Shown piece after piece: positions 19,036 to 38,401 of a stretch of DNA of 64,000 nucleotides. Source of the DNA: Nocardioides sp. HDW12B (GTDB lineage: Bacteria; Actinomycetota; Actinomycetes; Propionibacteriales; Nocardioidaceae); assembly GCF_011299595.1 (NCBI RefSeq), contig NZ_CP049867.1, positions 3,472,001 through 3,536,000 of the forward strand, in the 5' to 3' direction. A program made the translations under genes and the position numbers. Under the pieces are notes generated by a model, which was not told the origin of the DNA, made no database searches, and saw nothing but the letters and a program-made list of their open reading frames with translations. How positions within the stretch are numbered: position 1 is the stretch's first letter; every line of letters starts with the position of its first letter.

Positions 19036-20025
19036 GTGGGCGAGTTCACGGTGGATCCGGACAGCTTGACGGCGAGCGCCGAGGTCGGGCGACGGCAGGC
19101 CGAGCACCTGGCGAAGGTCGACGGCTACATCTCGTCGGCCTGCAGCCGCTTCGAGGCCTTCACCGGCGTCCTGAGCTTCTTCCAGGGCCAGTACTCCGAG
19201 GCGGTCTCCACCGCCCGTGAGGGTGTCCAGACGTTCGGCGACGTCGCCCGGACCGTCGACGAGTCCTTCGAGGGCTGCCGCGACGACTACCTGACGGGCG
19301 ACCGGCAGGTCTACCAACGCTTCGACCGCGCCTTCAGCGACGTCGTCAACCTGGCGCCGTACGAGAAGCCGGGGTCCGGGTCGTCGGTGCCCGCGACCGG
19401 TGGTCCGCCGGCCATGCCGGGATCGGCGCTCGCCGACCCCAAGCCCTACGAGCTGCCGAAGGCGCCGGACTGGGTCAACAAGCCCTACGACACCGTCTTC
19501 CCGAACAACGACGACACCCCGGCGCTCACGCCCCGCGGCGCCATGAAGGAGGGCGCCGTCCGCTGGCTCGACGGCTGGGTCGACGACGCCCAGCAACGGC
19601 ACTACGAGCGCCAGGGCTACTCACCGACGGAAGCCCGTGACATGGCCCGGGCCAGCGCCGACGACCACGCCTCGACCGCGATGCACGACCGCATCGAGGG
19701 CCGCGCCTCGGAGGCCGGGTGGAGGGCCTACTGGGAGGCCCGGGAGAACGGCAGCAGCCACGAGGACGCGACGGCGGCCCGCCACGACGCCTACGGCGAG
19801 TCGCGCAGCAGCGACGCGGTCGACAGCGGCAACCGCCGCGACATCTTCGACGCCGGCAGCGCCTACAAGGGCGCCTACGACGGCGTGAACGACGCCATCA
19901 AGAACACCCAGGAGGTCGCACAGGGCGTGCAGGACCTGCAGGACCAGATGGACGACAACGATCGCTACGGCGACTTCATCGACCGCGAGGACGACGACAG
20001 CAACGAGGAGTGGGGCAGCCGATGA
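19036..20025 (+). CDS. ESX/T7SS-type secretion-target protein with C-terminal extension
   Basis: 329 aa from the GTG at 19036, preceded by GAGGGGGA. An ATG at 19009 is an alternative without a ribosome site. Residues 1-95 look like the helical N-terminus of actinobacterial ESX targets (GEFTVDPDSLTASAEVGRRQ, then helices with regular Ala and Leu). A Pro-rich linker leads to a hydrophilic, His/Asp/Glu-rich helical C-terminal part ending in an acidic tail. It overlaps the next gene by ATGA and faces the T7SS genes, so it is probably a cargo. No toxin motif was recognised. Confidence 0.65.
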   Translation: MGEFTVDPDSLTASAEVGRRQAEHLAKVDGYISSACSRFEAFTGVLSFFQGQYSEAVSTAREGVQTFGDVARTVDESFEGCRDDYLTGDRQVYQRFDRAFSDVVNLAPYEKPGSGSSVPATGGPPAMPGSALADPKPYELPKAPDWVNKPYDTVFPNNDDTPALTPRGAMKEGAVRWLDGWVDDAQQRHYERQGYSPTEARDMARASADDHASTAMHDRIEGRASEAGWRAYWEARENGSSHEDATAARHDAYGESRSSDAVDSGNRRDIFDAGSAYKGAYDGVNDAIKNTQEVAQGVQDLQDQMDDNDRYGDFIDREDDDSNEEWGSR

Positions 20026-20768
20026 GCGTCTTCGAAGCCTTCGACGCATCCTCGGTGGTGGGCGGGTCGCCGCCCGCCGGCCGGCGGGGCGAGGTGATCG
20101 AGGAGGCGAAGAAGAACTGCGGCTTCCTGATCCGGGGCATCGACTGGGCCGTGCACAAGGTGACGGGCTGGAGCCTGCTGGAGGCGATCCTCGAGCCGCT
20201 GGCCGGCGACTTCAACACCCTGGACTCCATGAGCCAGGCCTGGGAGGAGGTCGCGGTGGCGCTGGGCGCCGTCGGCGACAACTACCGCTCGCTCGGGCAG
20301 CAGCTGCCCGGGGTCTGGACGGGCAGCGCGTCCGAGGCCGCCGTCGGGCGTCTCACGTCGATCGCGGGCAGCCACGACGAGCAGCAGGAAGCCGCGGAGA
20401 TGATCGCCGAGCAGCTCACGGCGCTCATCGAGGTCTCCGAGGCCACGGTGGACACGGTGGCCGCCTGCATCAACCTCGTCAACGACATCGCGCAGGACCT
20501 GCTGGCCTCCGCCGCGTCGGGAGGGGTCGGCCTGCTCAAGGTCGCCTTCACCGCACCTGGCAAGGTGAAGCGGATGGTGACGCTGATCCACCGGGCCATC
20601 GAGGCCCTCGACCGGCTCACCTCCGCGGCCAAGGCCGTGGCCACGGTCATGAAGCACGTCAACGCGGCGCTGAACGTCGCCGACGGGGTGCTCGACTTCG
20701 GCAACGCGGCGACCAACTCGCGCGCCGGCGGGATGATGAACGAGACGGCCGGCGCCGGGTTCGGCTGA
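20022..20768 (+). CDS. WXG100-superfamily-like protein with C-terminal helical region
   Basis: 248 aa. ATGA overlap with the preceding gene indicates coupling. A helix-turn-helix of WXG type is visible in the middle: the turn LPGVWTGSASEAA sits between an Ala/Leu helix (WEEVAVALGAVGDNYRSLGQ) and a long amphipathic helix (EEQ-rich, then IAEQLTALIEVSEATVDTV). A more hydrophobic region follows (ASAASGGVGLLKVAF), then further helices. The WTG turn is the signature of ESX substrates and chaperone partners. It is probably the partner of the upstream protein. Function beyond T7SS association is unknown. Confidence 0.7.
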   Translation: MSVFEAFDASSVVGGSPPAGRRGEVIEEAKKNCGFLIRGIDWAVHKVTGWSLLEAILEPLAGDFNTLDSMSQAWEEVAVALGAVGDNYRSLGQQLPGVWTGSASEAAVGRLTSIAGSHDEQQEAAEMIAEQLTALIEVSEATVDTVAACINLVNDIAQDLLASAASGGVGLLKVAFTAPGKVKRMVTLIHRAIEALDRLTSAAKAVATVMKHVNAALNVADGVLDFGNAATNSRAGGMMNETAGAGFG

Positions 20769-20827
20769 GCCCGCCGCCTCGACCACCCGCCCGTCAGTCA
20801 CGCCCGAGACCCCCGCCAGGAGCACCG

Positions 20828-21247
20828 ATGAGCCTCTCGTCCGACCCCCGTCTGCGGCAGGCGCTCGAGGAGTCGCGCCGTCAGACCCGGGACGCCGTGC
20901 GGGACCTGCGCGCCCTCACCGCGCAGACGCAGGCGGAGCAGCGCGAGTTCCGCAAGGAGCAGGAGCGGTCCGGTGCCGACCGCGCCACGGACGCCCGTCG
21001 TGGCGCGCTCGGTCCCGCCATGCAGCGGGTCCAGGAGCGCATCGACCGCCGTCAGACCACCTGGAACGACGTCGTCTCCGGTGCGGACACCCACCCGAGC
21101 GCGGTCGCCGTCCGTCGCGACATCGAGCAGGGGCTGGCCGAGTTCCGTCGTCTGGCCGACCAGGACCCCGAGGTCATCGAGGCGCAGATCGCGGCGCGCG
21201 CGGCAGCCGAACGCCTCCGCGGCGCCTCCGGCCCCGGCGCCCGCTGA
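20828..21247 (+). CDS. Small charged coiled-coil protein
   Basis: 139 aa, rich in Arg, Gln, Glu and Ala throughout, with heptad-like patterning from about residue 5 to 130 and no cysteine or membrane segment. It follows the two T7SS-type genes by 59 bp on the same strand and converges on the mycosin gene. A chaperone, immunity or cargo-partner role is possible by position, but I recognise no family. Confidence 0.6.
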   Translation: MSLSSDPRLRQALEESRRQTRDAVRDLRALTAQTQAEQREFRKEQERSGADRATDARRGALGPAMQRVQERIDRRQTTWNDVVSGADTHPSAVAVRRDIEQGLAEFRRLADQDPEVIEAQIAARAAAERLRGASGPGAR

Positions 21248-21248
21248 C

Positions 21249-21265
21249 CCCGGCGAGCCGCCGGG
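21249..21265. terminator. Short hairpin between convergent genes
   Basis: CCCGGCG pairs with CGCCGGG around a 3-nt loop, 2 bp after the stop of the plus-strand operon and 24 bp from the mycosin stop. There is no T tract, so it is only a candidate bidirectional terminator. Confidence 0.35.
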
Positions 21266-21289
21266 ACACCTGACGGGTCGCCGCCGCCC

Positions 21290-22579
21290 TCAGACCTCCG
21301 CGGACGCCGTACGCCGTCGCGTCGCCGGCCGCACGATGAGGGCGAGCGCGGTGAGTCCGACGCCTCCGAGGCCCCACCACAGCGCCGCCTGGCGAGCGTC
21401 GGCCCACGGGTCGACGGCCGCACCGAGAGCCTTGACGTCCGCCGTCGCCTCGGGTCGCTCGCGCTTGAGCCCCCGCGGGAGCGGCGGCCCGGGGATCGTC
21501 GGGTCGATGGTCATCGTCAGCGCCTCGACCGGGCGGATCTGGCCCCACCCCTGCACCGGGTCGGAGTAGCCGAGCCTCGGCCGGTCCGCCGAGGCGAGGA
21601 TGCGGTAGACGATCTCCTCCGCCGAGGCCTGCGGGTACAGCTCGCGCAGCTGGGCCGCGAGCCCCGCCACGAACGGTGCGGCCCAGCTGGAGTACGGCCG
21701 GTCGACTCCCCCGACGCAGTCGCCGCGGTTGCCCAACGAGGCCACGAGCACGTTCTGCCCGGGAGCCGCCACGTCGGAGCCGGGACCGTGCACGGTGTAG
21801 GCGTCCACGACGCCGGTGGTGTTGGTGGCGGCGACGCCGATGACGTTCTCGTTGGCCGCCGGGTAGCGGGACGCGGTCAGCGCGTCGTCCTCGCTCGCCG
21901 GGGCGTGGTTGCCCGCCGAGGCAACCACCACGACGTCCTCGCTCTGCGCGTAGTCGAGCGCCTGCGTCAGGCTCGGCAGGTCCGCGTCCTCGGAGTCGGT
22001 GCTCATGGACACGTTGATGACGTCGGCCCCGTTGTCCACGGCCCAGCGGATCCCGGCCGCCATCAGCGCGGAGTTGGGCTCGCCGGTGTTGTAGACGTCG
22101 TCGTCGCCCTCGCTGACGAAGACCTGGACCGGGAGGATCTTGGCGTCGCGCGCCGTCCCGACCAGGCCCGAGCCCTCGATCTCCCGGGCGGCGATGACGC
22201 CGGCGACGGCCGTGCCGTGCCCGTAGAGGTCGCTGCGGCCGTCGGCGGTGACGCCGGGGCCGCTGACGAAGGACGTGCCGGGGAGCACGACGTCGGGGCC
22301 GAGGTGCAGGTTGTCGACGTCCACCCCGGAGTCGACCACGGCCACGGTGACCCCGGCCCCGGTCGCCAGCTCCCACGACTGCGGGAACCCGAGGTTGATG
22401 ATCGCCGCCGACTTCTGCTCGATGAAGGGGTCGTCGGCGGTCGGGCACTCCTCACCGGTCTCGGCCGCTCCGGCGGGTGCCGGCGGGACCAGGAGCAGGC
22501 CGACCGCTGCGGCAGCGGTGAGTGCGGCCGCCCGACGAGCGGGTCCCGCGTGAGCGGGCGTCCGCCTGGCCCGGGTCAT
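21290..22579 (-). CDS. mycP: Type VII secretion mycosin (S8 subtilisin-like serine protease)
   Basis: 429 aa from the ATG at 22579, which overlaps the eccB stop (ATGA). The frame is open far upstream but only as shadow of eccB. A signal segment (about 14-38) precedes the protease domain with catalytic Asp83 (VAVVDSGVD), His121 (YGHGTAVAG) and Ser298 (YSSWAAPFVAG, where most subtilases have GTSxAxP). A C-terminal membrane helix (WWGLGGVGLTALALIV) and basic tail anchor it with the catalytic domain outside. Mycosins stabilise or process the ESX membrane complex. Confidence 0.93.
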   Translation of the reverse strand: MTRARRTPAHAGPARRAAALTAAAAVGLLLVPPAPAGAAETGEECPTADDPFIEQKSAAIINLGFPQSWELATGAGVTVAVVDSGVDVDNLHLGPDVVLPGTSFVSGPGVTADGRSDLYGHGTAVAGVIAAREIEGSGLVGTARDAKILPVQVFVSEGDDDVYNTGEPNSALMAAGIRWAVDNGADVINVSMSTDSEDADLPSLTQALDYAQSEDVVVVASAGNHAPASEDDALTASRYPAANENVIGVAATNTTGVVDAYTVHGPGSDVAAPGQNVLVASLGNRGDCVGGVDRPYSSWAAPFVAGLAAQLRELYPQASAEEIVYRILASADRPRLGYSDPVQGWGQIRPVEALTMTIDPTIPGPPLPRGLKRERPEATADVKALGAAVDPWADARQAALWWGLGGVGLTALALIVRPATRRRTASAEV

Positions 22580-23958
22580 GAGTCGCCCTGCTGGTCGGCG
22601 ACCGGAGGCTGCCCGGCCGCGCTGCGGGTCAGGGCCGGCCCGTCCCGGAAGATCTTCGTCCACGGGAGCGGGACCGACGGCGGCTCCACGGCGGCGTAGC
22701 CGAGGGACGCACGCGTGCTCGCCGAGTCGGCCGGTGTGCCCACGGCGTAGCGCGTCCCGGTGGAGTCGACGAGGAAGACGCTGCCCGTCCCCAGCACGCC
22801 GCCCGGCGAGGCCTGCACGAGCGCACCTCCCCCCGGCTGGATGTCGCGGGAGAAGAGTCCGTCCACGATGGCGGGAGCGGACTCCGTGGGGGCGGAGAGC
22901 GAGACCACGGGCGCGGCCCCCTCCTCGGTGTCCAGACGCGCGCACTCGACGTCGGTCGTCGCGTAGTCCTCGACCATCTCCTGCGGCCACGACTCCGGGT
23001 AGGGCGTGTCGTCGTCGAGGTTGAGCCCGGCGACGTCGGAGTTGCTGACGTCGATGTCGAGCCGGGCGAGCTGGGCTCCGCGCCCGGAGCTCGTGTAGAC
23101 GGCAGCAGCGAAGGGCGACAGGGGGATGAGGGTCCCGCCCTGGCCCAGGGCGTAGGGACGGCCGTCGACGAGCAACGGCGTGCCCACGCGGGTCAGGCCG
23201 GGCACGCCCGTGCTGTTGACCTGCGTGCCGGCGCCGTCGACGGCGAAGGGGACCAGCGGGTCCCCCACCGGGAACAGGTCGAGCCAGACCCCGGTGACGC
23301 CGCGCTCGGGCTGGTCGTCGAGGCCGAGCGCTCGCAGCACGGCCGCCTGGGGCTTGGCGGCGTCCGGCAGCTGGTAGCGCTGGTTGCCGGTGACGATCCA
23401 GGACCCCTCGCCGTCGACGACGCGCAACGCCTCGTCGGTGACGGGCGTCGAGACCGGCGTGTCGCCCACGGAGACCGCGAGGCCTCCCGTGCTGTCGGTG
23501 CACGCCGTCCAGCCGGACTGCACGAGGCTGCTGGGTGCGGGGAGGGCGTCCGGGGCCCCCTGGATGCCGATGGTCGCCTCGGTCGGCGCCTCGGCGATGA
23601 GGTCCTCCGGGACGAAGTTGACCTTCATCTCCTCCCCGTCGCTGGCGAGGAGCAGCCGGGCGGAGGTCGTGTTGATGACGGGGTAGAGCGTGCCCTCGAC
23701 CGCGACGAAGCGTGACCCGCTGTCCTTGCCGACGACGAGACCGCCGTTGCTCCAGTCCTCGGGGACGCTGGGCTTGATGAAGCCCGACACGGCGGCGCCC
23801 GCCACGATGAGCAGGGCCAGGACCAGTCCGCCCACGAGCGTGCGGCCGTAGCGGACGGGTTCCACCTCGCGCCCACCCGGCGCCCCGCTGACGAACGCGG
23901 TCACCAGACGACGCCGGTTGAAGGAGTGGGCCTCGACGAGGTCGCGCTTGCTGGACAT
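22576..23958 (-). CDS. eccB: Type VII secretion protein EccB
   Basis: 460 aa. The N-terminal cytoplasmic stretch (SKRDLVEAHSFNRRRLVTAF) and single membrane helix at about 40-60 are typical of EccB, followed by a large extracytoplasmic domain with repeated beta blocks (YALGQGGTLIPLSPFA, YAVGTPADSASTRASLGY). EccB forms the periplasmic cap-like part of the ESX translocon. Two Cys residues in the extracytoplasmic domain could form the family disulphide. It overlaps mycP by 4 nt and follows the LPDTG gene by 86 bp. Confidence 0.92.
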   Translation of the reverse strand: MSSKRDLVEAHSFNRRRLVTAFVSGAPGGREVEPVRYGRTLVGGLVLALLIVAGAAVSGFIKPSVPEDWSNGGLVVGKDSGSRFVAVEGTLYPVINTTSARLLLASDGEEMKVNFVPEDLIAEAPTEATIGIQGAPDALPAPSSLVQSGWTACTDSTGGLAVSVGDTPVSTPVTDEALRVVDGEGSWIVTGNQRYQLPDAAKPQAAVLRALGLDDQPERGVTGVWLDLFPVGDPLVPFAVDGAGTQVNSTGVPGLTRVGTPLLVDGRPYALGQGGTLIPLSPFAAAVYTSSGRGAQLARLDIDVSNSDVAGLNLDDDTPYPESWPQEMVEDYATTDVECARLDTEEGAAPVVSLSAPTESAPAIVDGLFSRDIQPGGGALVQASPGGVLGTGSVFLVDSTGTRYAVGTPADSASTRASLGYAAVEPPSVPLPWTKIFRDGPALTRSAAGQPPVADQQGDS

Positions 23959-24044
23959 TCAGCCTCGGGTTCGTGACGCGGGTGGGTGTGAGGTCAGCAG
24001 TCGGGGGCAGCGGTCTCCCGCTGCCCCCGACCTCGGTCGCTCGA

Positions 24045-25199
<1,155 letters not shown>

Positions 25200-25319
25200 G
25201 GTGTTTCCTCTTTCTCTCATGCGTGTGAATCGTGGACGTCGGGGCGTCGTCGCCCCGGACGGGTGGGTCATCGGTGGGTCGTGCAGCTCGTCGGGTCCGT
25301 CAGGTCGGTCACGGCGCCC

Positions 25320-26687
25320 TCACACCGCCCCGACCACGCCGATGGCGACGACGAGGAGGGGCAGGAGGGACACCAGGGCGACCAGCTCCGCCACGTCGCC
25401 GAGTCGCCCTCGGCGCACCGAGGGAGGCATCGGGACCAGCGTGCTGACGAGCAGGACGGCTGCAGCCGCGGCGAGCACGAGGGCGAGCCCGACGTGCCAG
25501 GACGACTGCAGCAGCAGCGCCGCGGCGGCCGTCGCCGCCAGGCCGGCCACGCCGCACACCAGGCCGACGGCGACCTCGCTGCCGACGCGGTACTGCCGGG
25601 TGCGCAGCATCAGCGCGACGCTCGACATGACGACCACGAGGGCGCCCGTGACGCCGAGGCCCACCGCGAGGGGGCTGACGAGCACCAGCAGGATGCCGAC
25701 CGTCGCGGTGACGGCCAGCAGGACCTCGTGACCCATCCGGGCCCCGGCGCGCACGGCGTCCGGGTCGATGTCGGCGGGCTCGGCAGTCAGGTCGGCGTGG
25801 GTGTGGGCCTGCTCGACGTTCGTGCCGGTGGAGCCGAGCGCGAACCAGGGCAGGGCGCTGCCGGCGAGCACGACCACCACGAGGGCGACGACGTACACGT
25901 TCGCCGGGTCCAGGTCGGTGGCCTGCGCCAGGCCGCTGCCGACGGCCAGCACCGCGCCGACGACCGCCGCCGGGAGCATCAGCGCTCGTCGCTGGACGAG
26001 ACCGAAGAACGCGATCACGCCCACCAGCAGGACGCCACCTCCGGTGGCGGCCAGCGGGAGCTCGAGCACCGGGCCGGAGTCGACGACCGTGAGGCCGGCG
26101 ACACCGGCGTAGAAGGCGCTCGTCCAGGCCAGCACCAGCGCCGCGGTGTGCTCGGCACGCACCCGGGCCAGGGTCAGGGCAGCGGCCAGGAGCAGCAGCG
26201 CTCCCACCCCCGCCGCGGCTCCGGCCACCGGGTCGGGGCGTTGCAGCGCCAGGGCGAGCCCGCCCAGGCCGAGCAGGAGCGCCCCGGCCGACAGCGCCGT
26301 ACGACGACCCGAGGCCGGGTCCCACGGCTGGAGGTCGCCCTCCACCGCGTCGGCCATCGCCTCGACGATGTCGTCGTACACCCGGGGAGGCCGCTGGTCG
26401 GCGCCGACGACGACGCTCAGCACGGCTCCGTCCTCGACGCCCTGGAGGGTCAGCCCGGCCTCGCCGGAGAGCCGTCGGCCGTCGGATGCGTGCAGCTCGT
26501 AGCCGGCGTACGCCGTCGCCGGGTCGAGCACGCCGACGGTGCGGCACAGCTCGGGGAGCAGCTCGGCCACCGGCAACGTCGCCGGCAGCACCAGGTCGGC
26601 GCGGCGTCCGCCGCCCACGACCGTGACCCGGACGAGGCTGGCGCCGGGCGCCGCCGCCGAGGTCGGCTCCTCCATGGTCTGCGTCAT
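25320..26687 (-). CDS. eccD: Type VII secretion integral membrane protein EccD (copy 2)
   Basis: 455 aa from the ATG at 26687, overlapping the upstream stop (ATGA). An N-terminal ubiquitin-like (YukD-type) domain covers about residues 18-92 (LVRVTVVGGGRRADLVLP, ending VLSVVVGADQRPP). After a cytoplasmic linker come about eleven hydrophobic helices to the C-terminus. This is the standard EccD plan. In mycobacterial structures two EccD chains line each protomer's vestibule. It is one of two different EccD genes in this locus. Confidence 0.9.
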   Translation of the reverse strand: MTQTMEEPTSAAAPGASLVRVTVVGGGRRADLVLPATLPVAELLPELCRTVGVLDPATAYAGYELHASDGRRLSGEAGLTLQGVEDGAVLSVVVGADQRPPRVYDDIVEAMADAVEGDLQPWDPASGRRTALSAGALLLGLGGLALALQRPDPVAGAAAGVGALLLLAAALTLARVRAEHTAALVLAWTSAFYAGVAGLTVVDSGPVLELPLAATGGGVLLVGVIAFFGLVQRRALMLPAAVVGAVLAVGSGLAQATDLDPANVYVVALVVVVLAGSALPWFALGSTGTNVEQAHTHADLTAEPADIDPDAVRAGARMGHEVLLAVTATVGILLVLVSPLAVGLGVTGALVVVMSSVALMLRTRQYRVGSEVAVGLVCGVAGLAATAAAALLLQSSWHVGLALVLAAAAAVLLVSTLVPMPPSVRRGRLGDVAELVALVSLLPLLVVAIGVVGAV

Positions 26688-28168
26688 CGGATCACGTCCG
26701 GTCCGAGCTCGTCGTCGTCGATCCACGCGTCCTCGTCGGCCAGCAGCATCGAGCGACGGTGGCCGTCCTCGTCCTCGTGCGCGCCCTGACCGCCTCGGCC
26801 CCCGGTGCCGGCCGCACCGGCCGCGCCGGCTGCTCCCCGGGCGGCGCCTCCGCGTCCGCCGGTGGTCGTCCCGGCCACGCCGGCCGCCCCGCGGCCACCG
26901 GCCGCGCCGGCCGCGCCGCCGCGACCGCCGGCTGCACCTGCGGAGCCGGGGGCCATGCCGCCCCGGGCGCCGCCGGCCGTCGAGGTGCCGGTGGTGCTCG
27001 CCGGGACCATGGTGCCGCCGCGGGCTCCCGCGGCGCTCGAGCCGGTGGTCCCTCCAGCGCCGCTGGTGACACCGGTGCCGGCAGCTCCGGCGGGGAGTGC
27101 ACCGCTGCGCCCGACCGTGCCTGCGAGACCGGACCGCGCACTGGCGCCGATCGCGCCGCCACGACCGGCCGCCGAGCTGCCGCTCGTGCCGGCGACGGCG
27201 GTCGAGCTCAGGGCCCCCGCCGCCCGGGCTCCGAGCAGGCCTCGACTGCCACCCTTGAGGACCCCCAGCGCGCCGGCGCCCGCGGCGACGCCGCCGAGGC
27301 CGATGCCGGGCGATCCGCCCGTGGCACCGATCGCGGACCCGCCGGTGGAGGCCGCCCCCGAGCCGAGGCCGGTGGTGCCACCGAGGTCCGTGGTGCCGCC
27401 GATCTGTCCGTCGGCGGTGACGCCGGTCGCCGGCGTCGAGCCGATGGCGGGGACGTTGGCGCCGTTGCCCGAGCCGAGGACCAGGACGCTGTCGAGGCCG
27501 CCCCGACCGCCGCCGGTGACCGCGCGCACGCCGGAGGCGGTGGAGTAGGTGCCCACCGGACCCGCGTAGGTCGAGGAGGAGCCGGAGCCGCCGCCGGTCC
27601 CCCCGGTGCCGCCACCGCCGCCACCCGTGCCGCCACCGCCGCCGCCACCGCCGCCACCGCCGCTGCCCTCGCGCTGGGAGGCCGCGGAGATGTCGCCGTT
27701 GACGCTCTCCATGCTCGTGGTCATCTCGGCGTAGGCCTCCTGCGCCGCCGACTCCCGGGCGTTCGCCGCCTGGTTGCGCTGCGCGTTCAGCTTGATGTAG
27801 CGGACCTCCTCGTCCGCAGCCGCGTCGGCGCCGGGCGCGGTCGGCGAGGGCGGGACGGGCGGCAGGTTCGCGTACGCCGACTTCGCGGTCCGCAGCGTGG
27901 AGGCAGCCGTGGTGAGCGCGGACGAGGCCGCGTTCATCCGGGAGCTGAAGTCCTGGGTGCGTTCGGCCAGGCCGTCGAAGGCGGTCGTCGCCGCCGTGGC
28001 GTCGCGCCCCTGCCAGTCCGCGGCGATCGCCGTGCTCGCCGAGCGGAGTGCCTCACTGACGTCTCCCAGGCCGGTCGACGCCTTCTTCCACGCGGTCGCG
28101 GCGCTGTCGATCTGACCCGGCTCCGCCGACTCGACCCTGGCGAGCTTCTGCTCGTTCGGTCCTGCCAT
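26684..28168 (-). CDS. WXG-domain, Gly/Ala-rich PPE-like ESX protein
   Basis: 494 aa. Residues about 15-165 form a helical WXG100-like domain with the turn ADWQGRD (W52-G54) and further helices. Then comes a poly-Gly run and a 280-residue Gly/Ala/Thr-rich region without predicted fold. It ends with an acidic motif (EDAWIDDDELGPDVIR) resembling the conserved C-termini of PPE-like proteins in other actinobacterial T7SS loci. ATGA overlap with eccD. It could be a secreted surface protein or a structural component. Confidence 0.8.
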   Translation of the reverse strand: MAGPNEQKLARVESAEPGQIDSAATAWKKASTGLGDVSEALRSASTAIAADWQGRDATAATTAFDGLAERTQDFSSRMNAASSALTTAASTLRTAKSAYANLPPVPPSPTAPGADAAADEEVRYIKLNAQRNQAANARESAAQEAYAEMTTSMESVNGDISAASQREGSGGGGGGGGGGGTGGGGGGTGGTGGGSGSSSTYAGPVGTYSTASGVRAVTGGGRGGLDSVLVLGSGNGANVPAIGSTPATGVTADGQIGGTTDLGGTTGLGSGAASTGGSAIGATGGSPGIGLGGVAAGAGALGVLKGGSRGLLGARAAGALSSTAVAGTSGSSAAGRGGAIGASARSGLAGTVGRSGALPAGAAGTGVTSGAGGTTGSSAAGARGGTMVPASTTGTSTAGGARGGMAPGSAGAAGGRGGAAGAAGGRGAAGVAGTTTGGRGGAARGAAGAAGAAGTGGRGGQGAHEDEDGHRRSMLLADEDAWIDDDELGPDVIR

Positions 28169-28189
28169 GTCCCTGACTCCCCTCGTGTC

Positions 28190-29572: not shown

Positions 29573-29576
29573 TGCG

Positions 29577-30326
29577 TCACTGGGCCTGGGTGCCCGAGCC
29601 GGACGACGGCAGGGCGGGCTCCAGCACGTCGATCGTGCCGTCGCCGTCGGCGTCGAAGGACGTGGCGATGGGAGTCGGGGCGGCATCGCCCTCGAACGTC
29701 GTGGTCGACGACTCCGTGCTCCCCGAGTCGTCCCCGGCGCCGTAGCTGTAGGTCTCCGGGGAGTCGGTGTTGCCGGTGGCCCCGTCGTTGCCCTCGGGAC
29801 GCTCACTGCCGGCGGGCGGCTCGGACCCCTCGCGCTGCTCGGCGGCGGGCGGCGGGTCGCCGAGCTCCTCGCGGTGCTCGGCGCCGGCGTTGTCGAAGTT
29901 CTGGTCGGCCTGCGACTGGTAGCCGCTCATCGACTCGTTGAGGCCGCTCAGGGCACCCTGGCCGGCGCGCTGGGCGTCGGCCGCCGACTGCTCGTCCGTG
30001 GCCTCGTGGGCGTTGCAGCTCGCCTCGATGTTGGCCGCGAAGGTCTCGAGGTCGGCGATGACGCCGTCGATGGTGTCCATGAAGACCTGGTGGGCGGCCT
30101 GGTGCTGCTGGCCGACGGTCTGGGCGATCGGCACCTGTCCGAACGCGGACGGGGCGAGGTCCAGCGCGCGGAAGTCGCTGGACTGGGACGTGGCGTTGTC
30201 CTGCATCGCGGCCATGTTGTCGCGCGCGATGCGTCGGATCGCCTCGATCGTGATCTCGATCTGTCCCGAGACTGCTCCGGCCGGGATGTCGGTGCTGCCA
30301 CCGCCACCGGAATCTGCGTTCACCAT
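29577..30326 (-). CDS. ESX-associated helical protein with C-terminal EF-hand loop
   Basis: 249 aa. Residues 15-150 are helical, hydrophilic and Ala/Gln-rich with no WXG turn, resembling long ESX helical-bundle proteins. A disordered Pro/Glu/Ser/Thr region follows. Near the end, residues 225-236 read DADGDGTIDVLE, a canonical EF-hand calcium loop: Asp at 1, 3 and 5, Gly6, Ile8, Glu12. No membrane segment or signal peptide is present, so export would be through the T7SS. It lies between the WXG100 pair and the second mycosin. Role unknown. Confidence 0.75.
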   Translation of the reverse strand: MVNADSGGGGSTDIPAGAVSGQIEITIEAIRRIARDNMAAMQDNATSQSSDFRALDLAPSAFGQVPIAQTVGQQHQAAHQVFMDTIDGVIADLETFAANIEASCNAHEATDEQSAADAQRAGQGALSGLNESMSGYQSQADQNFDNAGAEHREELGDPPPAAEQREGSEPPAGSERPEGNDGATGNTDSPETYSYGAGDDSGSTESSTTTFEGDAAPTPIATSFDADGDGTIDVLEPALPSSGSGTQAQ

Positions 30327-30509: not shown

Positions 30510-30806
30510 TCAGCCCCAGCGCGCGGTGTTCTGGCTCTCGGTCGCCTGGTAGTCGCTGTTGGACGACGTGACGGCGGTGCCGATCTCGGCCAGCAGGGCC
30601 TTCATGTCGGCCATCGCGGTGTCCCACTTGGCCTTGGCGACCTGGTACGAGTTGGACGCCTCACCGGTCCAGTCCGAGCGCAGCGGCGCCAGCTCGGACT
30701 CGAGGGCGTCGAGACGACCCTCGATCTGGTTGGCCTGCGACTGGATGTCAGCCGCCGCCGCGTCGAGGCTGCCGAAGTTGACCTTCAGCTCTCCTGCTCC
30801 ACTCAT
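30510..30806 (-). CDS. WXG100 family ESX protein (EsxA/EsxB-like), second of pair
   Basis: 98 aa. A two-helix hairpin with the turn SDWTGEA (W46-T-G48), and the C-terminal secretion motif YxxxD/E as YQATE (Y87 to E91). These are the hallmarks of small ESX substrates exported as a folded helical dimer. The ATG is preceded by GAGGGGAAA. It lies 52 bp after the other WXG100 gene, and the two products probably dimerise. Confidence 0.92.
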   Translation of the reverse strand: MSGAGELKVNFGSLDAAAADIQSQANQIEGRLDALESELAPLRSDWTGEASNSYQVAKAKWDTAMADMKALLAEIGTAVTSSNSDYQATESQNTARWG

Positions 30807-30858
30807 GTTCTGTTTCCCCTCGTGCGTGTGTGAAAAGTCGGGTGGGTGTCGGAGCCGG

Positions 30859-31170: not shown

Positions 31171-31274
31171 GTGGCCAGCCTCCTTGTCGATCCCCCGCCG
31201 TGGCGTGTCCGGTGCCACGATCGAGACTTGTCCCCAGCCGGTCGGCAGGCGACTCGCGTTCCTCTATCAGTTAA

Positions 31275-31334
31275 CCCTGGAATCCCGTCCAGGGCGGCGA
31301 TTTGACCCTAAATCGAAAGTCCCGATCTGGACAA
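31275..31334 (-). promoter_or_regulatory. Candidate promoter and operators of the esx substrate operon
   Basis: On the minus strand TTGTCC (31329-31334) and TAGGGT (31305-31310) are spaced by 18 bp. A perfect inverted repeat CGATTT-N6-AAATCG (31298-31315) covers the -10 box, and a second CCCTGG-N8-CCAGGG (31275-31294) lies just downstream. The stretch is clearly AT-richer than its surroundings. Repressor binding is inferred, not shown. Confidence 0.45.
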
Positions 31335-31420
31335 ATCACAGTGCCGCACGTCCTAGATTCCCGCGCCGGCGGCACCCGAAACGCTGCGGGGACGGTTGAC
31401 GCGTCATGTGTCGGGCGGGG

Positions 31421-33007: not shown

Positions 33008-33301
33008 CCCGCACCCCCGTCCTTCACTCGTCCACCTTCGTCGATCCGCCGATGTTCCGTCCGTCGAGCCGCCGGTCGCCGGGCCCCGACGGCCGGCCAC
33101 CACCTGCGTCAGCCGGTCCCCGCCGCCCGTCCGATGGGACGAAGCGGGCGCGGACGTCAGGTTTGCGTCCTACCATCGTGCACGAACCTGGAGTCCACTG
33201 TGTCCGGGTTGCGAAGAGTCGGCACGATGCGCCCCGCATCCGCCGGGACGCCCCTGCTTCCCGCGCGGGCCACGGCGCACGTCCTACGGGGAGGTCCACG
33301 C

Positions 33302-36300
33302 TTGTCCACCACGCTCAGCCACGGCAGCCGGCTCGACCCGCCGACGATGCCCGACGGGGAGCTGGTGCTGCAGGCACCCCCCGAGCTCGCCCCCAACGAG
33401 GGCGCCGGCGGTGCCCTGATGATGGCGCTCCCGATGCTCGGCAGCGTGGGCTCCATCGTCTTCATCTCCGCGGCGCAGCCGGGCGGCAAGAGCATGATCG
33501 CCGCCGGCATGTTCCTCGTCGCCACGCTGGGCTTCATCGGCGTGCAGATCGACCGCCAGCGCAAGCAGCGCAGCGCCAAGATCGGCGGCGCCCGCCGCGA
33601 GTACCTGCAGTACCTCGCCGGCGTCCGCAAGGTCGTCCGCGAGGCGGCCGACCAGCAGCGCCGCACGCTGCTGTGGCACCACCCCGCACCCGCCGCGCTG
33701 CCCGCCCTGGCCGAGGAGCGCCAGCGCCTGTGGGAGCGCGGTCCCGACCACGAGGACTTCCTGCTCACGCGCTACGGCCGCAGCCCCCAGGCCCTGGCCC
33801 TGCGTCTCGTGCCGCCGGAGACCGCGCCCGTCGAGCAGCTCGACCCGGTCGCCGCCTCGGCCCTGCACCGGCTGCTCGTCGTGCACCGCAACCAGCCCGA
33901 CCTGCCGGCCAAGGTCGACATGCAGGCCTTCAGCCGCATCGAGGTCACCGGCGACGAGGGCCCGGCCCGCGGGCTGGCGCGCGCCATGGTCTGCTCCGCC
34001 GCCGCCGCCCACCGTCCCGACGAGATGATCGTCGCGGTGCTGACCAACGACCAGAGCGTCGCCGCGTGGGAGTGGGCCAAGTGGCTCCCCCACGCGCAGA
34101 GCACCGAGGACGCCGACGCCATCGGCCCCAGCCGCATGGTCTGCGACAGCCTCGACGACCTCGCCGCGATGCTGCCCAAGGACCTCGTCGACCGTCCGCG
34201 CTTCGGCGCGGCCGGAGCCGCGGCCACGCCGCACCTGCTGCTCGTGGTCGACGGCGGCTCCCTGCCGCCCGGCAACCACCTGATCCCCGACGAGGGCGTC
34301 CACGGCGTCACCGTGCTCGACCTGCCCGAGCAGTGGGGCGAGCTCTCCGACCCCACCCGGCTCCGCCTGCACCTCGAGGGCGAGGCAACCGAGGACGGCA
34401 CCGTGCCGCTCACCGGCATCCAGGTCTACCGCGACCCCTTCCGCGCCCTCGGCGACCAGATGGACCTCGCCAGCGCCGAGGCCTTCGCCCGCCGCCTGGC
34501 CCCCCTCCACACCGTCCAGGGCCCGGCCCGCGAGGACTCGCTCAGCCGTGCCCCCGAGCTGCCCGACCTGCTCGGCCTGGCCGACGTCCGGACCTTCGAC
34601 CTCGACGCCGCGTGGCAGACCCGGCCCCAGCGCGACCGGCTGCGCGTGCCCGTCGGCATCGGCGACAGCGGCGGCCCGGTGCTCCTCGACATCAAGGAGT
34701 CCGCCCAGCAGGGCATGGGTCCGCACGGCCTCGTGATCGGCGCCACCGGCTCCGGCAAGTCGGAGTTCCTCCGCACCCTGGTGCTCGGTCTCGCGATGAC
34801 CCACTCCAGCGAGGTCCTCAACATGGTCCTCGTCGACTTCAAGGGCGGCGCGACCTTCGCCGGGCTCTCCGAGATGCCCCACGTCTCGGCCGTCATCACC
34901 AACCTCGAGAACGAGCTCACCCTCGTCGACCGCATGCAGGACGCGCTGTCGGGCGAGATGGTGCGCCGCCAGGAGCTGCTGCGCATCTCCGGCAACTACG
35001 CCTCGCTCAAGGACTACGAGAAGGCGCGCACCAGCGGCGAGGCCGAGCTCGACCCGCTGCCGAGCCTGTTCATCGTCGTCGACGAGTTCTCCGAGATGCT
35101 GTCGGCCAAGCCCGAGTTCATCGACCTCTTCGTCGCCATCGGCCGCCTCGGCCGCTCGCTCGGCATCCACCTGCTGCTGGCCTCTCAGCGGCTCGAGGAG
35201 GGTCGCCTGCGCGGCCTCGAGAGCCACCTGTCCTACCGCATCGGCCTGCGCACCTTCTCCGCGTCGGAGTCGCGGGCCGTCCTCGGGGTGCCGGACGCCT
35301 ACGAGCTGCCGTCGGTGCCGGGCCTGGGCTACCTCAAGCCCGACCAGTCCACGCTGCTGAAGTTCAAGGCCGCCTACGTCTCCGGTCCGCCGCCGCGCGT
35401 CGGCCGGGGCACCGTGAACCGCTCCTCGGGCGGCCTCCAGACCGTGATGCCCTTCTCGCTCGGCCACGTCCTCGCCCCGCACCAGGACGAGCCCGAGGAC
35501 CAGGTCGTCGAGGTCCGCAGCGGCTCGGAGGAGGCGGCCGACCACCGCTCCCTGCTCGACATCGCCGTCGACCGCATGGAGGGGCACGGCCCCGGCGCCC
35601 ACAAGGTGTGGCTGCCGCCGCTGGACGTGCCCGACACCCTCGACGAGCTCATGCCGGACCTCACCGAGGACCCCGAGCTCGGACTGGTCTCGCCGTCGTG
35701 GCGCGGACGCGGCGGGCTCGTCGTACCGCTCGGGACGGTGGACCGGCCGCGCGAGCAGCGCCGCGACACCCTGACGGTGAACCTCACCGGAGCCGGCGGG
35801 CACGTCGCCGTCGTCGGCGGGCCCCGCAGCGGCAAGAGCACGCTGCTGCGCACGGTGCTGACCAGCCTCGCGCTGACCACCACCCCGGCCGAGACCCAGT
35901 TCTACGTCCTCGACTTCGGCGGCGGCACCTTCGCGCCGCTGATCGACCTGCCGCACGTCGCCGGTGTCGCCACCCGCTCCGAGCCGGACGTCGTGCGCCG
36001 CATCTACGCCGAGGTGCTCGGCATCGTGGACAAGCGCGAGCGCTACTTCCGCTCCCAGGGCATCGACTCGATCGAGACCTACCGCTCACGCCGCGCCCAG
36101 GGCCGCGCCGACGACGGGTACGGCGACGTGTTCCTGTTCGTCGACGGCTGGAGCACGCTGCGCTCGGACTTCGACGAGCTGGAGATGGCGCTGCAGTCGC
36201 TCGCCCAGCGCGGCCTCACCTTCGGCCTGCACATCGTGGCCGGCGCTGCCCGGTGGGCCGACTTCCGCGCTGCCACCCGCGACGTCCTCGGCACCCGGCT

Positions 36301-37297
36301 CGAGCTGCGTCTCGGTGACCCGATGGACTCCGAGATCGACCGCAAGGTCGCCCAGCTGGTGCCCAACGGCCGGCCCGGCCGCGGTCTGGTCCCGGCCAAG
36401 CTGCACTTCCTCGCCGCCCTGCCCCGCATCGACGGCGAGCCCGACGGCAACACCACGGGCACCGGCGTCGAGGACCTGGTCGAGCGCTCCCGCAAGGCGT
36501 GGCGCGGCGAGCAGGGCCCGAAACTGCGCCTGCTGCCCGAGAAGATCGAGCTGGCGCAGGTGCACGAGCAGGTCGGGCGTCAGCGCGACCTCACCACCGA
36601 CCGCCGGCTCTACCTCGCCATCGACGAGAAGGACCTGGCCCCGGTGGGCCTCGACGTCGAGCGCGAGCCGCACCTGCTGACCTTCGGCGACAGCCGCTCG
36701 GGCAAGAGCGCCCTGCTGCGGGCCTACCTGTCCGAGGTGATGCGCACGCGCACCGCCGAGGAGGCCCAGGTGGTCGTCGTCGACTACCGCCGGTCGCTGC
36801 TGGGCGAGGTGCCCGAGGACTACGCCCTGCACTACCTGACCAGCGCCACCCAGGCCCAGCCGGCGATCGCCGAGCTCGCGCAGTACCTCGAGGGTCGGCT
36901 GCCCGGCCCCGACGTCACGCCCGAGCAGCTGCGCAACCGCTCGTGGTGGACCGGGGCGGAGGTGTTCGTGGTCATCGACGACTACGACCTCGTCTCCACC
37001 CAGTCCAGCTCGCCGATGGCACCGCTGGTGCCGCTGCTCGCCCAGGCCCGCGACGTCGGCCTGCACCTCGCGGTGGCCCGGCGCTCCGGTGGCGCGGCGC
37101 GTGCGCTCTACGAGCCCGTCATCCAGTCGCTGCGCGACCTCGCCATGCCGGGTCTGCTGCTCTCCGGCAGCCCCGACGAGGGCCCGCTCATCGGCACCAC
37201 GAAGCCCCGCCCGGGCGTCTCGGGGCGTGGCCAGCTCATCACCCGCGACCGCGGCGTCGAGGTCGTCCAGACGGTCTGGACGGACGCCTCGATCTGA
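33302..37297 (+). CDS. eccC: Type VII secretion FtsK/SpoIIIE-type ATPase EccC
   Basis: 1331 aa. The start is TTG at 33302, chosen for the GGGGAGG ribosome site 7 nt upstream. The frame is open to 31406 as shadow of eccD, and ATG 33347 is a weaker alternative. Two N-terminal membrane helices (about 38-57 and 62-81) are followed by three FtsK-like ATPase domains with Walker A motifs GATGSGKS (~480-487), GGPRSGKS (~839-846) and GDSRSGKS (~1129-1136). The first has Walker B LFIVVDEFSEM. A single-chain three-domain EccC recognises substrate tails and drives export. The gene converges on the sortase gene. Confidence 0.94.
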   Translation: MSTTLSHGSRLDPPTMPDGELVLQAPPELAPNEGAGGALMMALPMLGSVGSIVFISAAQPGGKSMIAAGMFLVATLGFIGVQIDRQRKQRSAKIGGARREYLQYLAGVRKVVREAADQQRRTLLWHHPAPAALPALAEERQRLWERGPDHEDFLLTRYGRSPQALALRLVPPETAPVEQLDPVAASALHRLLVVHRNQPDLPAKVDMQAFSRIEVTGDEGPARGLARAMVCSAAAAHRPDEMIVAVLTNDQSVAAWEWAKWLPHAQSTEDADAIGPSRMVCDSLDDLAAMLPKDLVDRPRFGAAGAAATPHLLLVVDGGSLPPGNHLIPDEGVHGVTVLDLPEQWGELSDPTRLRLHLEGEATEDGTVPLTGIQVYRDPFRALGDQMDLASAEAFARRLAPLHTVQGPAREDSLSRAPELPDLLGLADVRTFDLDAAWQTRPQRDRLRVPVGIGDSGGPVLLDIKESAQQGMGPHGLVIGATGSGKSEFLRTLVLGLAMTHSSEVLNMVLVDFKGGATFAGLSEMPHVSAVITNLENELTLVDRMQDALSGEMVRRQELLRISGNYASLKDYEKARTSGEAELDPLPSLFIVVDEFSEMLSAKPEFIDLFVAIGRLGRSLGIHLLLASQRLEEGRLRGLESHLSYRIGLRTFSASESRAVLGVPDAYELPSVPGLGYLKPDQSTLLKFKAAYVSGPPPRVGRGTVNRSSGGLQTVMPFSLGHVLAPHQDEPEDQVVEVRSGSEEAADHRSLLDIAVDRMEGHGPGAHKVWLPPLDVPDTLDELMPDLTEDPELGLVSPSWRGRGGLVVPLGTVDRPREQRRDTLTVNLTGAGGHVAVVGGPRSGKSTLLRTVLTSLALTTTPAETQFYVLDFGGGTFAPLIDLPHVAGVATRSEPDVVRRIYAEVLGIVDKRERYFRSQGIDSIETYRSRRAQGRADDGYGDVFLFVDGWSTLRSDFDELEMALQSLAQRGLTFGLHIVAGAARWADFRAATRDVLGTRLELRLGDPMDSEIDRKVAQLVPNGRPGRGLVPAKLHFLAALPRIDGEPDGNTTGTGVEDLVERSRKAWRGEQGPKLRLLPEKIELAQVHEQVGRQRDLTTDRRLYLAIDEKDLAPVGLDVEREPHLLTFGDSRSGKSALLRAYLSEVMRTRTAEEAQVVVVDYRRSLLGEVPEDYALHYLTSATQAQPAIAELAQYLEGRLPGPDVTPEQLRNRSWWTGAEVFVVIDDYDLVSTQSSSPMAPLVPLLAQARDVGLHLAVARRSGGAARALYEPVIQSLRDLAMPGLLLSGSPDEGPLIGTTKPRPGVSGRGQLITRDRGVEVVQTVWTDASI

Positions 37298-37307
37298 GTG
37301 CAGTCGG

Positions 37308-37339
37308 GCGTCCTGGTGTCGTTCACGACACCAGGACGC
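37308..37339. terminator. Strong 15-bp hairpin after eccC
   Basis: GCGTCCTGGTGTCGT (37308-37322) and ACGACACCAGGACGC (37325-37339) are perfect complements separated by TC. It begins 10 bp after the eccC stop, between convergent eccC and sortase genes. There is no T tract. It can act in both directions. Confidence 0.65.
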
Positions 37340-37343
37340 TCGC

Positions 37344-37415
37344 CGTACGTCGTTGACGACGTGGGGACGCCCCAGCCCAGCTCCCCACCGTCCGTACGTC
37401 GTTGACGACGTGGGG
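37344..37415. repeat. Paired 23-bp palindromic repeats downstream of eccC
   Basis: Two identical 23-bp copies at 37344-37366 and 37393-37415 (CGTACGTCGTTGACGACG followed by TGGGG). Within each, ACGTCGT-TG-ACGACGT is a near-perfect palindrome. The GTGGGG end of the first can also pair with CCCCAC just before the second. The copies lie only 27 bp apart and just before the sortase stop at 37424. Confidence 0.8.
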
Positions 37416-37423
37416 CCGTCGGG

Positions 37424-38401
37424 TCAGCGGGGCTCGGACGAGACCAGGTGGCCGAAGGCGATCATGCGGGTGTCGGTGTGGAACAGCTCGGCGCAGGTGG
37501 TCAGCGTGATGAGCCGGTCCTCGCCGGACGCCGGACCGACACCGCCGTCGGGGTTGCGCGGCTGCGGGTCGACGACCCACACGTTCTCGAAGCCGATGAC
37601 GAGGTCGTTGGGGTCGGTGTCCATCACGTAGGTGTGGACCGCGTCGCGGGTCGTCACGACCACCTCGTCGCCGGGGCGCAGCTCGGGCATCTTGCGCAAC
37701 GGCTCGCCGTGGGTGACCCGGTGGGCGGCCAGGGCGTAGTTGCCCCGCTCGCCCGGGGCGGCGGCGCCCTCGAAGTGGCCGAACCCCTCGGCGAGGACGT
37801 CGTCACCGACGCCGGTCTGCACCGGCATCACGTAGTCGTCGCCGAAGCGCGGGATCTGGATGAGCGCCTCGGCGGCCCCGACCTCGAGCGGCGCCTGCGG
37901 CCCGTCGCCGGCGGCCTGGGCCTCCCAGGCCTCCTCGGTGCGCTGCACCAGCGCCTGCTGGGCCTGGCGGGCGACGAAGTCGGTGCCGTAGTACTGCCAG
38001 CCGACCCAGCCCAGCACGCCGAGCCCCGAGGCCACGAGCACGAGCCCGAGGACGGTCCGCAGGCTCGACGGCACCCAGCGGCGACGGCGGCGCGGGGCTC
38101 GAGCGGGGTCGTCGCCGCGCGTGGCGTCGTCGGGGCTGTCCGGCACAGGGCGTGGGGAGGCCGGGTCCGCCGCTGACGTCGCTCCGGTCCCGCTCACGGC
38201 TCCATCATGCGCGACCCGCGGCAACGGCTCGAAGGGCGCCGCCGCGACCGGCATCGGAGTCGGTACGACGCCCGGCCGCGGCGCCTGGCCGTCCCGACGA
38301 CGACCCCGACGGCCGAGCAGCAGGCCGACGACGACGACCAGCAGGAACGGCAGCACGGCGGGCAGGGCCGGGAGGGTTCTCGACGACCGGTCACGGGACA
38401 T
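37424..38401 (-). CDS. Class E-type sortase
   Basis: 325 aa from the ATG at 38401. One membrane helix at about 9-27, a Pro-rich linker, and a second helix at about 113-132 precede the sortase domain. The catalytic residues are visible: His at about 227 in YALAAHRVTHG, Cys303 in ITLTTCAELFHTDTR and Arg312 in TRMIAFG. The TLTTC block resembles class E sortases of Actinobacteria, which usually prefer LAXTG, while other classes take LPXTG. The nearest candidate substrate in the window is the LPDTG protein at 24045-25199. Confidence 0.9.
   Translation of the reverse strand: MSRDRSSRTLPALPAVLPFLLVVVVGLLLGRRGRRRDGQAPRPGVVPTPMPVAAAPFEPLPRVAHDGAVSGTGATSAADPASPRPVPDSPDDATRGDDPARAPRRRRRWVPSSLRTVLGLVLVASGLGVLGWVGWQYYGTDFVARQAQQALVQRTEEAWEAQAAGDGPQAPLEVGAAEALIQIPRFGDDYVMPVQTGVGDDVLAEGFGHFEGAAAPGERGNYALAAHRVTHGEPLRKMPELRPGDEVVVTTRDAVHTYVMDTDPNDLVIGFENVWVVDPQPRNPDGGVGPASGEDRLITLTTCAELFHTDTRMIAFGHLVSSEPR

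What the first reader, a model, noticed from the sequence alone, without database searches (positions are those of the whole stretch)
19036..38401. A type VII secretion locus carrying its own cell-wall-anchored protein and a sortase
Between eccD copy 2 and eccB, in the same strand run, lies a secreted protein with a complete LPDTG sorting signal (residues 347-351, hydrophobic stretch, RRR) and acidic, possibly calcium-binding repeats. The sortase gene is directly convergent with eccC. ESX loci usually encode no sortase substrate. One reading is that the locus exports through EccC and then fixes a surface scaffold or pilus-like component to peptidoglycan, linking two export systems. Alternatively, the sortase is a housekeeping neighbour with unrelated targets.
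Basis: partly seen in the sequence, partly recalled or inferred. Interest (0 to 1): 0.75.

Follow-up and report, generated by a model that had tools for sequence, protein, structure and literature searches.

The report
Wall-anchored protein in ESX secretion locus
Some soil actinobacteria carry, at a fixed position inside the gene set for a type VII protein-export machine, a gene for a protein that looks built to be bolted to the cell wall, which hints at a wall-attached part of that machine; the neighbouring sortase gene looks like an ordinary housekeeping gene.

Summary
The window carries a type VII (ESX, T7SSa) locus with eccB, eccC, two eccD, two mycosins and esxA/esxB. A secreted protein with a complete LPDTG sorting signal lies between eccD2 and eccB, and a class E sortase gene converges on eccC.

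The two halves separate on comparison. The LPxTG-type gene is conserved: it lies directly upstream of eccB in 12 of 13 loci of this ESX type in the window's family, 5 of 26 eccB loci of a second family and one genome of a third. In 125 sequences scanned, all 17 sorting-signal hits fall at that spot. Typical Nocardioides ESX loci lack it. The sortase is not part of the module: its orthologue sits beside aat/pyrE, also in relatives without this ESX, and it adjoins eccC in 1 of the 10 loci where eccC is in view.

The sorting motif partly tracks a proposed substrate-reading residue of each genome's class E sortase, with exceptions. Best reading: an accessory wall-anchored stalk of a two-mycosin ESX subtype, fixed by the housekeeping sortase; its role in export is inferred. 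A pilus and calcium-binding are not supported.

The parts
24045..25199 (-). LPDTG protein (384 aa): signal peptide, acidic/Gly-rich low-complexity stalk, Cys pair, sorting signal LPDTG + hydrophobic stretch + RPRRR
   Evidence: positional orthologues
22576..23958 (-). eccB
   Evidence: PF05108 212.5 bits; TIGR03919 190.7 bits, cut-off 154
21290..22579 (-). mycP1, mycosin protease (start approximate)
   Evidence: PF00082 139.5 bits; TIGR03921 258 bits, under its cut-off of 278.75; Asp/His/Ser motifs present
25320..26687 (-). eccD2, with YukD and EccD domains
   Evidence: PF08817, PF19053; TIGR03920 101.2 bits, cut-off 94.95
26684..28168 (-). WXG100 domain plus Gly-rich tail, probable ESX substrate
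   Evidence: PF06013 28 bits, cut-off 27.3
28190..29569 (-). mycP2, second, divergent mycosin-like protease (start approximate)
   Evidence: PF00082 74.6 bits; TIGR03921 100.6 bits, under cut-off
29577..30326 (-). helical-looking protein between esxA and mycP2, possible substrate
   Evidence: no family match; tblastn matches in the same place in several clade A loci
30510..30806 (-). esxA-like WXG100 protein
   Evidence: PF06013 71.4 bits
30859..31170 (-). esxB-like WXG100 protein (start approximate)
   Evidence: PF06013 53.6 bits
31421..33007 (-). eccD1, divergent second EccD (start approximate)
   Evidence: PF08817, PF19053; TIGR03920 under its cut-off
33347..37297 (+). eccC (EccCa and EccCb fused)
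   Evidence: TIGR03924 942 bits, TIGR03925 872 bits
   Evidence: no Pfam match; homologues beside ESX in L120, L247, L249, L254
20022..20768 (+). WXG100/PPE-like protein
   Evidence: PF06013, PF00823, PF25547 at E 1e-4 to 5e-4, all under cut-off
20828..21247 (+). small protein, third of the set
   Evidence: homologues in L120, L247, L254
37424..38401 (-). srtE, class E sortase; housekeeping neighbour, not part of the ESX module
   Evidence: NF033747 186.6 bits, cut-off 160; synteny; residues

Best explanation
The LPDTG protein is a dedicated, accessory, wall-anchored component of a two-mycosin subtype of actinobacterial type VII (ESX) secretion. It leaves the cell by the Sec route and is cut at LPDTG and joined to peptidoglycan, most likely by the cell's housekeeping class E sortase, which merely happens to lie beside eccC in this genome. 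Its long low-complexity stalk then stands in the thick wall at or near the EccB/mycosin face of the export machine, where it holds the machine to the wall or helps substrates through it. Shown: gene content, conserved position, complete sorting signals. Supported but not shown: anchoring by the class E sortase. Inferred: physical contact with, and a role in, ESX export.
For: Signal peptide plus sorting signal is complete. The gene sits between eccD2 and eccB, same strand, in 12 of 13 loci of this ESX type in the window's family (window plus 11 of the 12 fetched), directly upstream of eccB in 5 of 26 eccB loci of a second family, and in one genome of a third. All 17 sorting-signal hits in 125 sequences fall at that spot. 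No terminator-like site by simple scan between eccD2 and eccB (0.3 expected by chance, so weak). Class E sortases carry Phe at the SrtE1 Tyr229 position in 6 of 6 LPxTG genomes of genera g1/g5/g12, and Tyr in 3 of 3 LAxTG genomes examined (position checked against SrtE1, PDB 5cuw). PMC5148588 (passages) proposes that this Tyr favours Ala at that motif position. Apparent use of LPVTG by a class E sortase is reported in Actinoplanes (PMC13251363, passages). Two of the three genomes with LPxAG in the ESX gene have LPRAG or LPNAG in another candidate (G063, G125).
Against: Most loci of related ESX type do without the gene: 21 of 26 in the second family, none in the f39 (2), f49 (1) and f16 (1) loci, one of 13 in the window's family. 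So it is not essential for secretion. Similarity between families is not established (hhalign probability 2.1%, P = 0.023 over 18 columns), and the eccB branch joining the window's clade to the other families has support 0.64 only, so the gene may have been gained more than once. The sortase correlation has exceptions: three genus g20 genomes have Tyr with LPATG and three have Asp with LPxAG; G023 and G011, without this ESX, also have Phe, so the residue follows lineage; G587, G102 and G125 hold other candidates whose motif differs from that of their ESX gene. Two other sortase-domain proteins are in the genome, one nearest class F (80.5 of 166 bits), one nearest class E (58.2 of 160 bits), and could do the anchoring. 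Nothing shows contact with EccB.
Confidence: 0.5

Rival explanations
1. The LPxTG protein is surface cargo (adhesin, coat or spacer) that is co-expressed with the ESX operon but has no part in export; the operon is only a convenient regulatory home.
For: Signal peptide means Sec export, not ESX. Stalk sequence is low complexity and differs widely between genera. The gene is missing from many related loci.
Against: Fixed slot next to eccB in three families, with no such gene elsewhere in the sequences scanned; surface cargo would be expected to vary in place.
Confidence: 0.3
2. The ESX locus, the LPDTG protein and the neighbouring srtE form one dedicated module.
For: In the window srtE converges on eccC with a 126-base gap, away from the place beside aat/pyrE that its orthologues hold in seven relatives. 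In five relatives with this ESX the orthologue lies on the same contig, about 29-34 kb from eccB.
Against: Adjacent to eccC in 1 of the 10 loci of this type with eccC in view (window plus 9); the orthologue exists in relatives without an eccB match (G023, G011); no hit to it by tblastn in the 80 eccC loci.
Confidence: 0.06
3. The C-terminus is only a membrane tail (like that of mycosins), and the LPxTG-like motif is not processed.
For: Three loci have LPxAG, not LPxTG; mycosins of the same locus have similar C-terminal membrane tails without a motif.
Against: Motif retained as LPxTG, LAxTG or LPxAG in every copy seen; Pfam's anchor model is passed; LPxAG recurs in one other candidate each of G063 and G125.
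Confidence: 0.08
4. Substrate of a different sortase of the genome (the class F-like one in L002), not of srtE.
For: The genome has two other PF04203 proteins, one nearest the class F model though under its cut-off; LPxTG is the motif usually given for class F (recalled).
Against: The L002 sortase lies beside a secreted protein that may be its own substrate; motif variation partly tracks the class E enzyme; in A. missouriensis a deletion of all four class F sortases had no phenotype (PMC13251363, passages).
Confidence: 0.25

Closest known systems
Actinobacterial type VII secretion (T7SSa/ESX, simple ESX-4-like loci)
   Same: EccB, EccC, EccD, mycosin and WXG100 pair; no scanned protein of the locus matched an eccA, eccE or espG model
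   Different: Two eccD genes, two mycosins, and a wall-anchored protein gene between eccD2 and eccB
EsaA/YueB of Firmicutes T7SSb
   Same: An extracellular part able to span the peptidoglycan beside the export machine (PMC9600267, passages)
   Different: EsaA is a polytopic membrane protein with a large folded extracellular domain; the protein here is a predicted sortase substrate with a low-complexity stalk and no Pfam match. Works-like only
Class E sortase substrates (chaplins of Streptomyces, SspA/CwpA/CwpB of Actinoplanes)
   Same: C-terminal LA/LPxTG sorting signal; class E sortase in the genome
   Different: Those are surface proteins of hyphae and spores (PMC5148588, PMC13251363, passages); no passage seen ties them to an ESX locus
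Class E sortase SrtE1 (S. coelicolor, PDB 5cuw)
   Same: Class E model passed; His, Cys and Arg motifs align
   Different: Phe instead of Tyr at the Tyr229 position in the window and its close relatives

Membership tests
T7SSa (ESX) secretion locus | EccC-type FtsK/SpoIIIE ATPase | tested here: met
   TIGR03924 and TIGR03925 far over cut-off
T7SSa (ESX) secretion locus | EccB, EccD, mycosin and WXG100 pair in the same locus | tested here: met
   EccB and EccD2 over cut-off; MycP1 258 of 278.75 bits, under cut-off but Peptidase_S8 over; two WXG100 over cut-off
T7SSa (ESX) secretion locus | Secretion of WXG100 substrates | not testable with these tools
   needs a secretion assay
LPxTG cell-wall-anchored sortase substrate | N-terminal signal peptide and C-terminal sorting signal | tested here: met
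   signal peptide judged from sequence, no predictor run
LPxTG cell-wall-anchored sortase substrate | Covalent link to peptidoglycan | not testable with these tools
   needs fractionation and mass spectrometry
Class E sortase | Class E model score and catalytic His, Cys, Arg | tested here: met
   186.6 bits, cut-off 160; alignments to 5go5, 5go6 and 5cuw
Class E sortase | Conserved Tyr in the beta3/beta4 loop (SrtE1 Tyr229) | tested here: not met
   Phe in the window and in G046, G086, G074, G091, G004 (alignment to 5cuw). The paper proposes this Tyr as a specificity feature, not as the definition of the class
Sortase-assembled pilus locus | Class C pilin sortase with several LPxTG pilins | tested here: not met
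   class C model 33.3 of 160 bits; one sorting-signal hit in the 64 kb window
Calcium-binding repeat protein | Recognised repeat family, conserved in orthologues | tested here: not met
   no Pfam match; repeats not kept in orthologues
EsaA/YueB | Polytopic membrane protein with large extracellular domain | tested here: not met
   one signal peptide and one C-terminal sorting signal; no Pfam match

The most novel reading that the evidence does not exclude
A lineage of T7SSa machines has a peptidoglycan-bound structural subunit: a sortase-anchored stalk that ties the EccB/mycosin face of the machine to the wall or forms the passage through it, a convergent answer to the EsaA/YueB stalk of Firmicutes, whose sorting motif co-evolves with the host's class E sortase.
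Probability: 0.3. Interest if true: 0.75.

Novelty: new variant of a known kind. Interest (0 to 1): 0.5.

Why it matters
How T7SSa substrates cross the thick wall of actinobacteria after leaving the membrane complex is an open question (general knowledge). A conserved wall-anchored protein encoded in the core of the operon is a concrete candidate that can be tested by single gene deletions in soil actinobacteria. The partial match between sorting motif and the sortase's proposed substrate-reading residue also gives a natural series for testing how class E sortases tell LPxTG from LAxTG.

Tried and rejected
Dedicated sortase of the ESX locus: rejected on synteny. Pilus locus: rejected, sortase is class E and there is one sorting-signal hit in the window. 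Calcium-binding repeats: rejected. Second sorting signal on mycP2 (GVDTG model 20.8 bits, cut-off 29): rejected as under cut-off. LPxTG gene as a general feature of Nocardioides ESX loci: rejected; of the 80 eccC loci, 67 show both eccB and eccD2, 64 of those with a gap of 29 bases or less, one (L071) with 188, and only L058 (709) and L038 (1335) with room for the gene, both of which have it; the other 13 of the 80 do not show both genes and cannot be judged.

Limits. (LPXTG_anchor in 15 genomes) did not report the window's own protein that searches find, and its cut-off is passed in 9 of 14 control genomes, so I did not use it to count LPxTG proteins per genome; one search looked at the 30 loci that one search gave, not at all its matches. 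In one search rows outside L004-L083, L120-L131, L199-L210 and L243-L262 were not printed (short or duplicate loci); its threshold missed the window's own protein, so I repeated it with the window and lower thresholds. A third-position GC filter was applied in both. The scanned loci overlap: L038/L129 and L058/L125 are the same contigs (equal lengths), so the 17 hits are 15 distinct loci, the window included. The 20 loci were chosen by hand from the hits, not at random. Clade A loci L126, L130 and L131 do not include eccC, so sortase adjacency cannot be judged there. The eccB tree used 64 sequences after two duplicates were dropped; a few are fragments, support inside clade A is low in places (0.26, 0.34), and two f36 sequences (L311, L312) fall outside the group. 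Class E sortases were picked by a sequence pattern, so class E enzymes that do not fit it were not counted. In one search the region around the best sortase of G028 (genus g5, no eccB match) showed none of the neighbouring genes, so the srtE neighbourhood was not confirmed in that genome. Structure prediction was not run: a low-complexity stalk would give a meaningless model. In one search some frames were picked wrongly (for example L134); one search replaces it.
Full report
What is in the window. The window is bases 3472001-3536000 of a single-contig 4.19 Mb genome, 74% G+C. From 19036 to 38401 it holds: three + strand genes, one of them WXG100-like; then on the - strand mycP1, eccB, the LPDTG gene, eccD2, a WXG100/Gly-rich protein, mycP2, a further small protein, esxA, esxB and eccD1; then eccC on the + strand; then srtE on the - strand, followed by clpB.

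The LPDTG protein. It has a signal peptide, an acidic Gly/Asp-rich stalk (75 D+E, 12 K+R in 317 residues), a Cys pair and a complete sorting signal. Pfam's anchor model accepts it (20.7 bits, cut-off 20; over cut-off in 2 of 14 control genomes). NCBIfam's does too, but that model passes its cut-off in 9 of 14 control genomes. It is the one sorting-signal hit in the 64 kb window. The simple scan finds no promoter-like or terminator-like site from 23800 to 26900, though it expects almost none in such DNA.

Is the gene conserved? With eccB as query, 156 of 294 sampled genomes of the family match at E <= 1e-20. Scores fall into two groups: 13 genomes at 342 bits or more (G000 itself, one of genus g12, four of g5, seven of g20; 'clade A'), and the rest, all of genus g7, at about 254 bits or less. 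Four other genomes of the window's own genus have no match. I fetched all 12 other clade A loci. In 11 of them a gene with signal peptide and sorting signal lies between eccD2 and eccB on the same strand; L131, from a genome rated 90% complete with 8% contamination, has none. Motifs are LPETG, LPDTG or LPATG in g1, g5 and g12; LPATG (three) or LPAAG/LPDAG (three) in g20. In typical Nocardioides loci the slot is closed: of 80 eccC loci, 67 show both genes and 64 of those leave 29 bases or fewer.

Beyond the family. I took 20 loci from other families of the class, chosen by hand. Three carry the gene directly upstream of eccB: G587 (f31, LAKTG), G558 and G797 (f36, LARTG). A search of 149 genomes of f36 gave 26 eccB loci: five carry it (genera g99, four, LARTG, G558 and G797 among them; g236, one, LAYTG), and in 21 eccD adjoins eccB. 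In f31 only G587 has an eccB of this kind (1 of 5). A scan that took no account of position covered 125 sequences, 2.6 Mb: all 17 sorting-signal hits (15 distinct loci) lie in this one slot and none elsewhere, at thresholds 1.7 and 1.5 (16 hits without the window at 1.9). In an eccB tree clade A is firm (0.997), and G587, f16, f39, f49 and f36 without L311 and L312 form a second group (0.927). The branch that joins the two apart from the Nocardioides and other ESX loci has support 0.635 only. Loci of both groups typically match both mycosins. Within the group the gene is scattered, so either one gain with several losses or a few gains. The stretch before the sorting signal looks alike to the eye between f36 and f1 (LG..P..G.V, then a Cys pair), but the profile comparison is weak (probability 2.1%, P = 0.023, 18 columns).

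The sortase. srtE passes the class E model. Its orthologues (53-63% identity) in G046, G086, G004, G074 and G091 lie next to aat, with pyrE, dedA or spoU on the other side, on the same contig about 29-34 kb from eccB. The same place is kept in G023 (same genus) and G011 (genus g12), which have no eccB match; in these two clpB lies on the far side of aat. The sortase region fetched from G028 (g5, no eccB match) showed none of these genes, so the neighbourhood is not confirmed there. In the four g20 flanks fetched no hit to srtE appears (L203, L204, L205, L209). The window's order puts srtE between eccC and clpB instead. Of the 12 other clade A loci, nine include eccC and none of these has srtE beside it. 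So srtE reads as a housekeeping regional gene that came to lie beside eccC in this lineage (1 of 10 seen).

Could srtE still be the enzyme? All 12 other clade A genomes have sortases, and a class E enzyme fits the pattern in each. PMC5148588 (passages) proposes that a conserved Tyr, SrtE1 Tyr229, favours Ala over Pro in the motif, while noting that SrtE1 can recognise both. The alignment of the window's enzyme to SrtE1 itself puts Phe at that Tyr. At this position the six g1/g5/g12 enzymes have Phe and their ESX genes read LPxTG; the three LAxTG genomes looked at (G558, G797, G587) have Tyr. That fits. Against it: three g20 genomes have Tyr with LPATG, three have Asp with LPxAG, and G023 and G011 have Phe without this ESX, so the residue follows the lineage and not the locus; genomes of this ESX type without the gene show Phe (G524) as well as Tyr (G844). 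Other candidates in the same genomes partly agree (G063 LPRAG, G125 LPNAG, G797 LAFTG) and partly do not (G102 LPDTG and LPNTG, G125 LPGTG, G587 LPRTG). I read this as moderate support that the motif is really used, not as proof of which sortase uses it. The two other sortase-domain proteins of the genome score nearest class F (80.5 of 166 bits) and class E (58.2 of 160 bits), both under cut-off.

How it most likely works. Sec export, cleavage at LPDTG, joining to peptidoglycan by the class E sortase, stalk exposed in the wall next to the EccB/mycosin side. EsaA/YueB of the Firmicutes system is a works-like comparison only: its extracellular domain is described as able to span the peptidoglycan (PMC9600267, passages). 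The gene's absence from many related loci means it is an accessory. Surface cargo with no role in export remains a serious rival.

What is in print. Full-text searches for type VII secretion with LPXTG, sortase, EccB, mycosin, cell wall anchor, EccD, Nocardioides gave no paper whose listing describes a sortase substrate as part of a T7SSa locus. Of these I read passages of PMC5720513 (Actinotignum; ESX genes and sortases reported, not as one locus), PMC10924467, PMC4791881 (no mention of LPXTG or sortase) and PMC9600267; the others I saw in the listing only. Most subscription papers are not held, so absence is only within this library.

The check mended the tree support (0.64, not 0.93, for the join), the adjacency count (1 of 10 seen, not 1 of 13), the scan threshold that had missed the window's own protein, and the labels of the other sortases.

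Noticed in passing
28190-29569 (-) and orthologues in L120-L129, L246-L254: The second mycosin keeps apparent Asp, His and Ser in 17 of 17 aligned copies, but the position of the oxyanion Asn is Asn in only 7 of 17 (Asp in the window; alignment uncertain there), so it may be a slow or non-cleaving protease.
   Followed up: partly
31421-33007 and 25320-26687 (-): Two eccD genes for one eccC, with eccD1 highly divergent: a possible EccD heterodimer in place of the homodimer known in mycobacterial ESX (recalled).
   Followed up: no
19036-21247 (+): A three-gene set, one WXG100/PPE-like, accompanies this ESX type in three families at varying places around the core (all three in L120, L247, L254; two in L249); possible secreted substrate set.
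   Followed up: partly
L002, 1498-3280 (-): A second sortase of the genome, nearest class F but under its cut-off, lies beside a secreted-looking protein of about 370 aa with a C-terminal membrane tail and no clear LPxTG motif; possible private substrate.
   Followed up: partly
37424-38401 (-) against L206, L207: srtE lies between eccC and clpB in the window instead of beside aat/pyrE, at the junction where the ESX locus sits; relocation and ESX insertion may be linked.
   Followed up: partly
L128 8686-9337 and 12748-13400: The esxB/esxA pair is duplicated within one genus g20 ESX locus.
   Followed up: no
L120 17038-18145: mycP1 matches in two reading frames in genome G046: frameshift or assembly error.
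   Followed up: no
L325, L339 and L123, L125, L127: LPxAG sorting signals recur in genus g20, in three ESX genes and in two other candidates; an unusual Ala at the cleaved position that may go with a changed class E sortase.
   Followed up: partly
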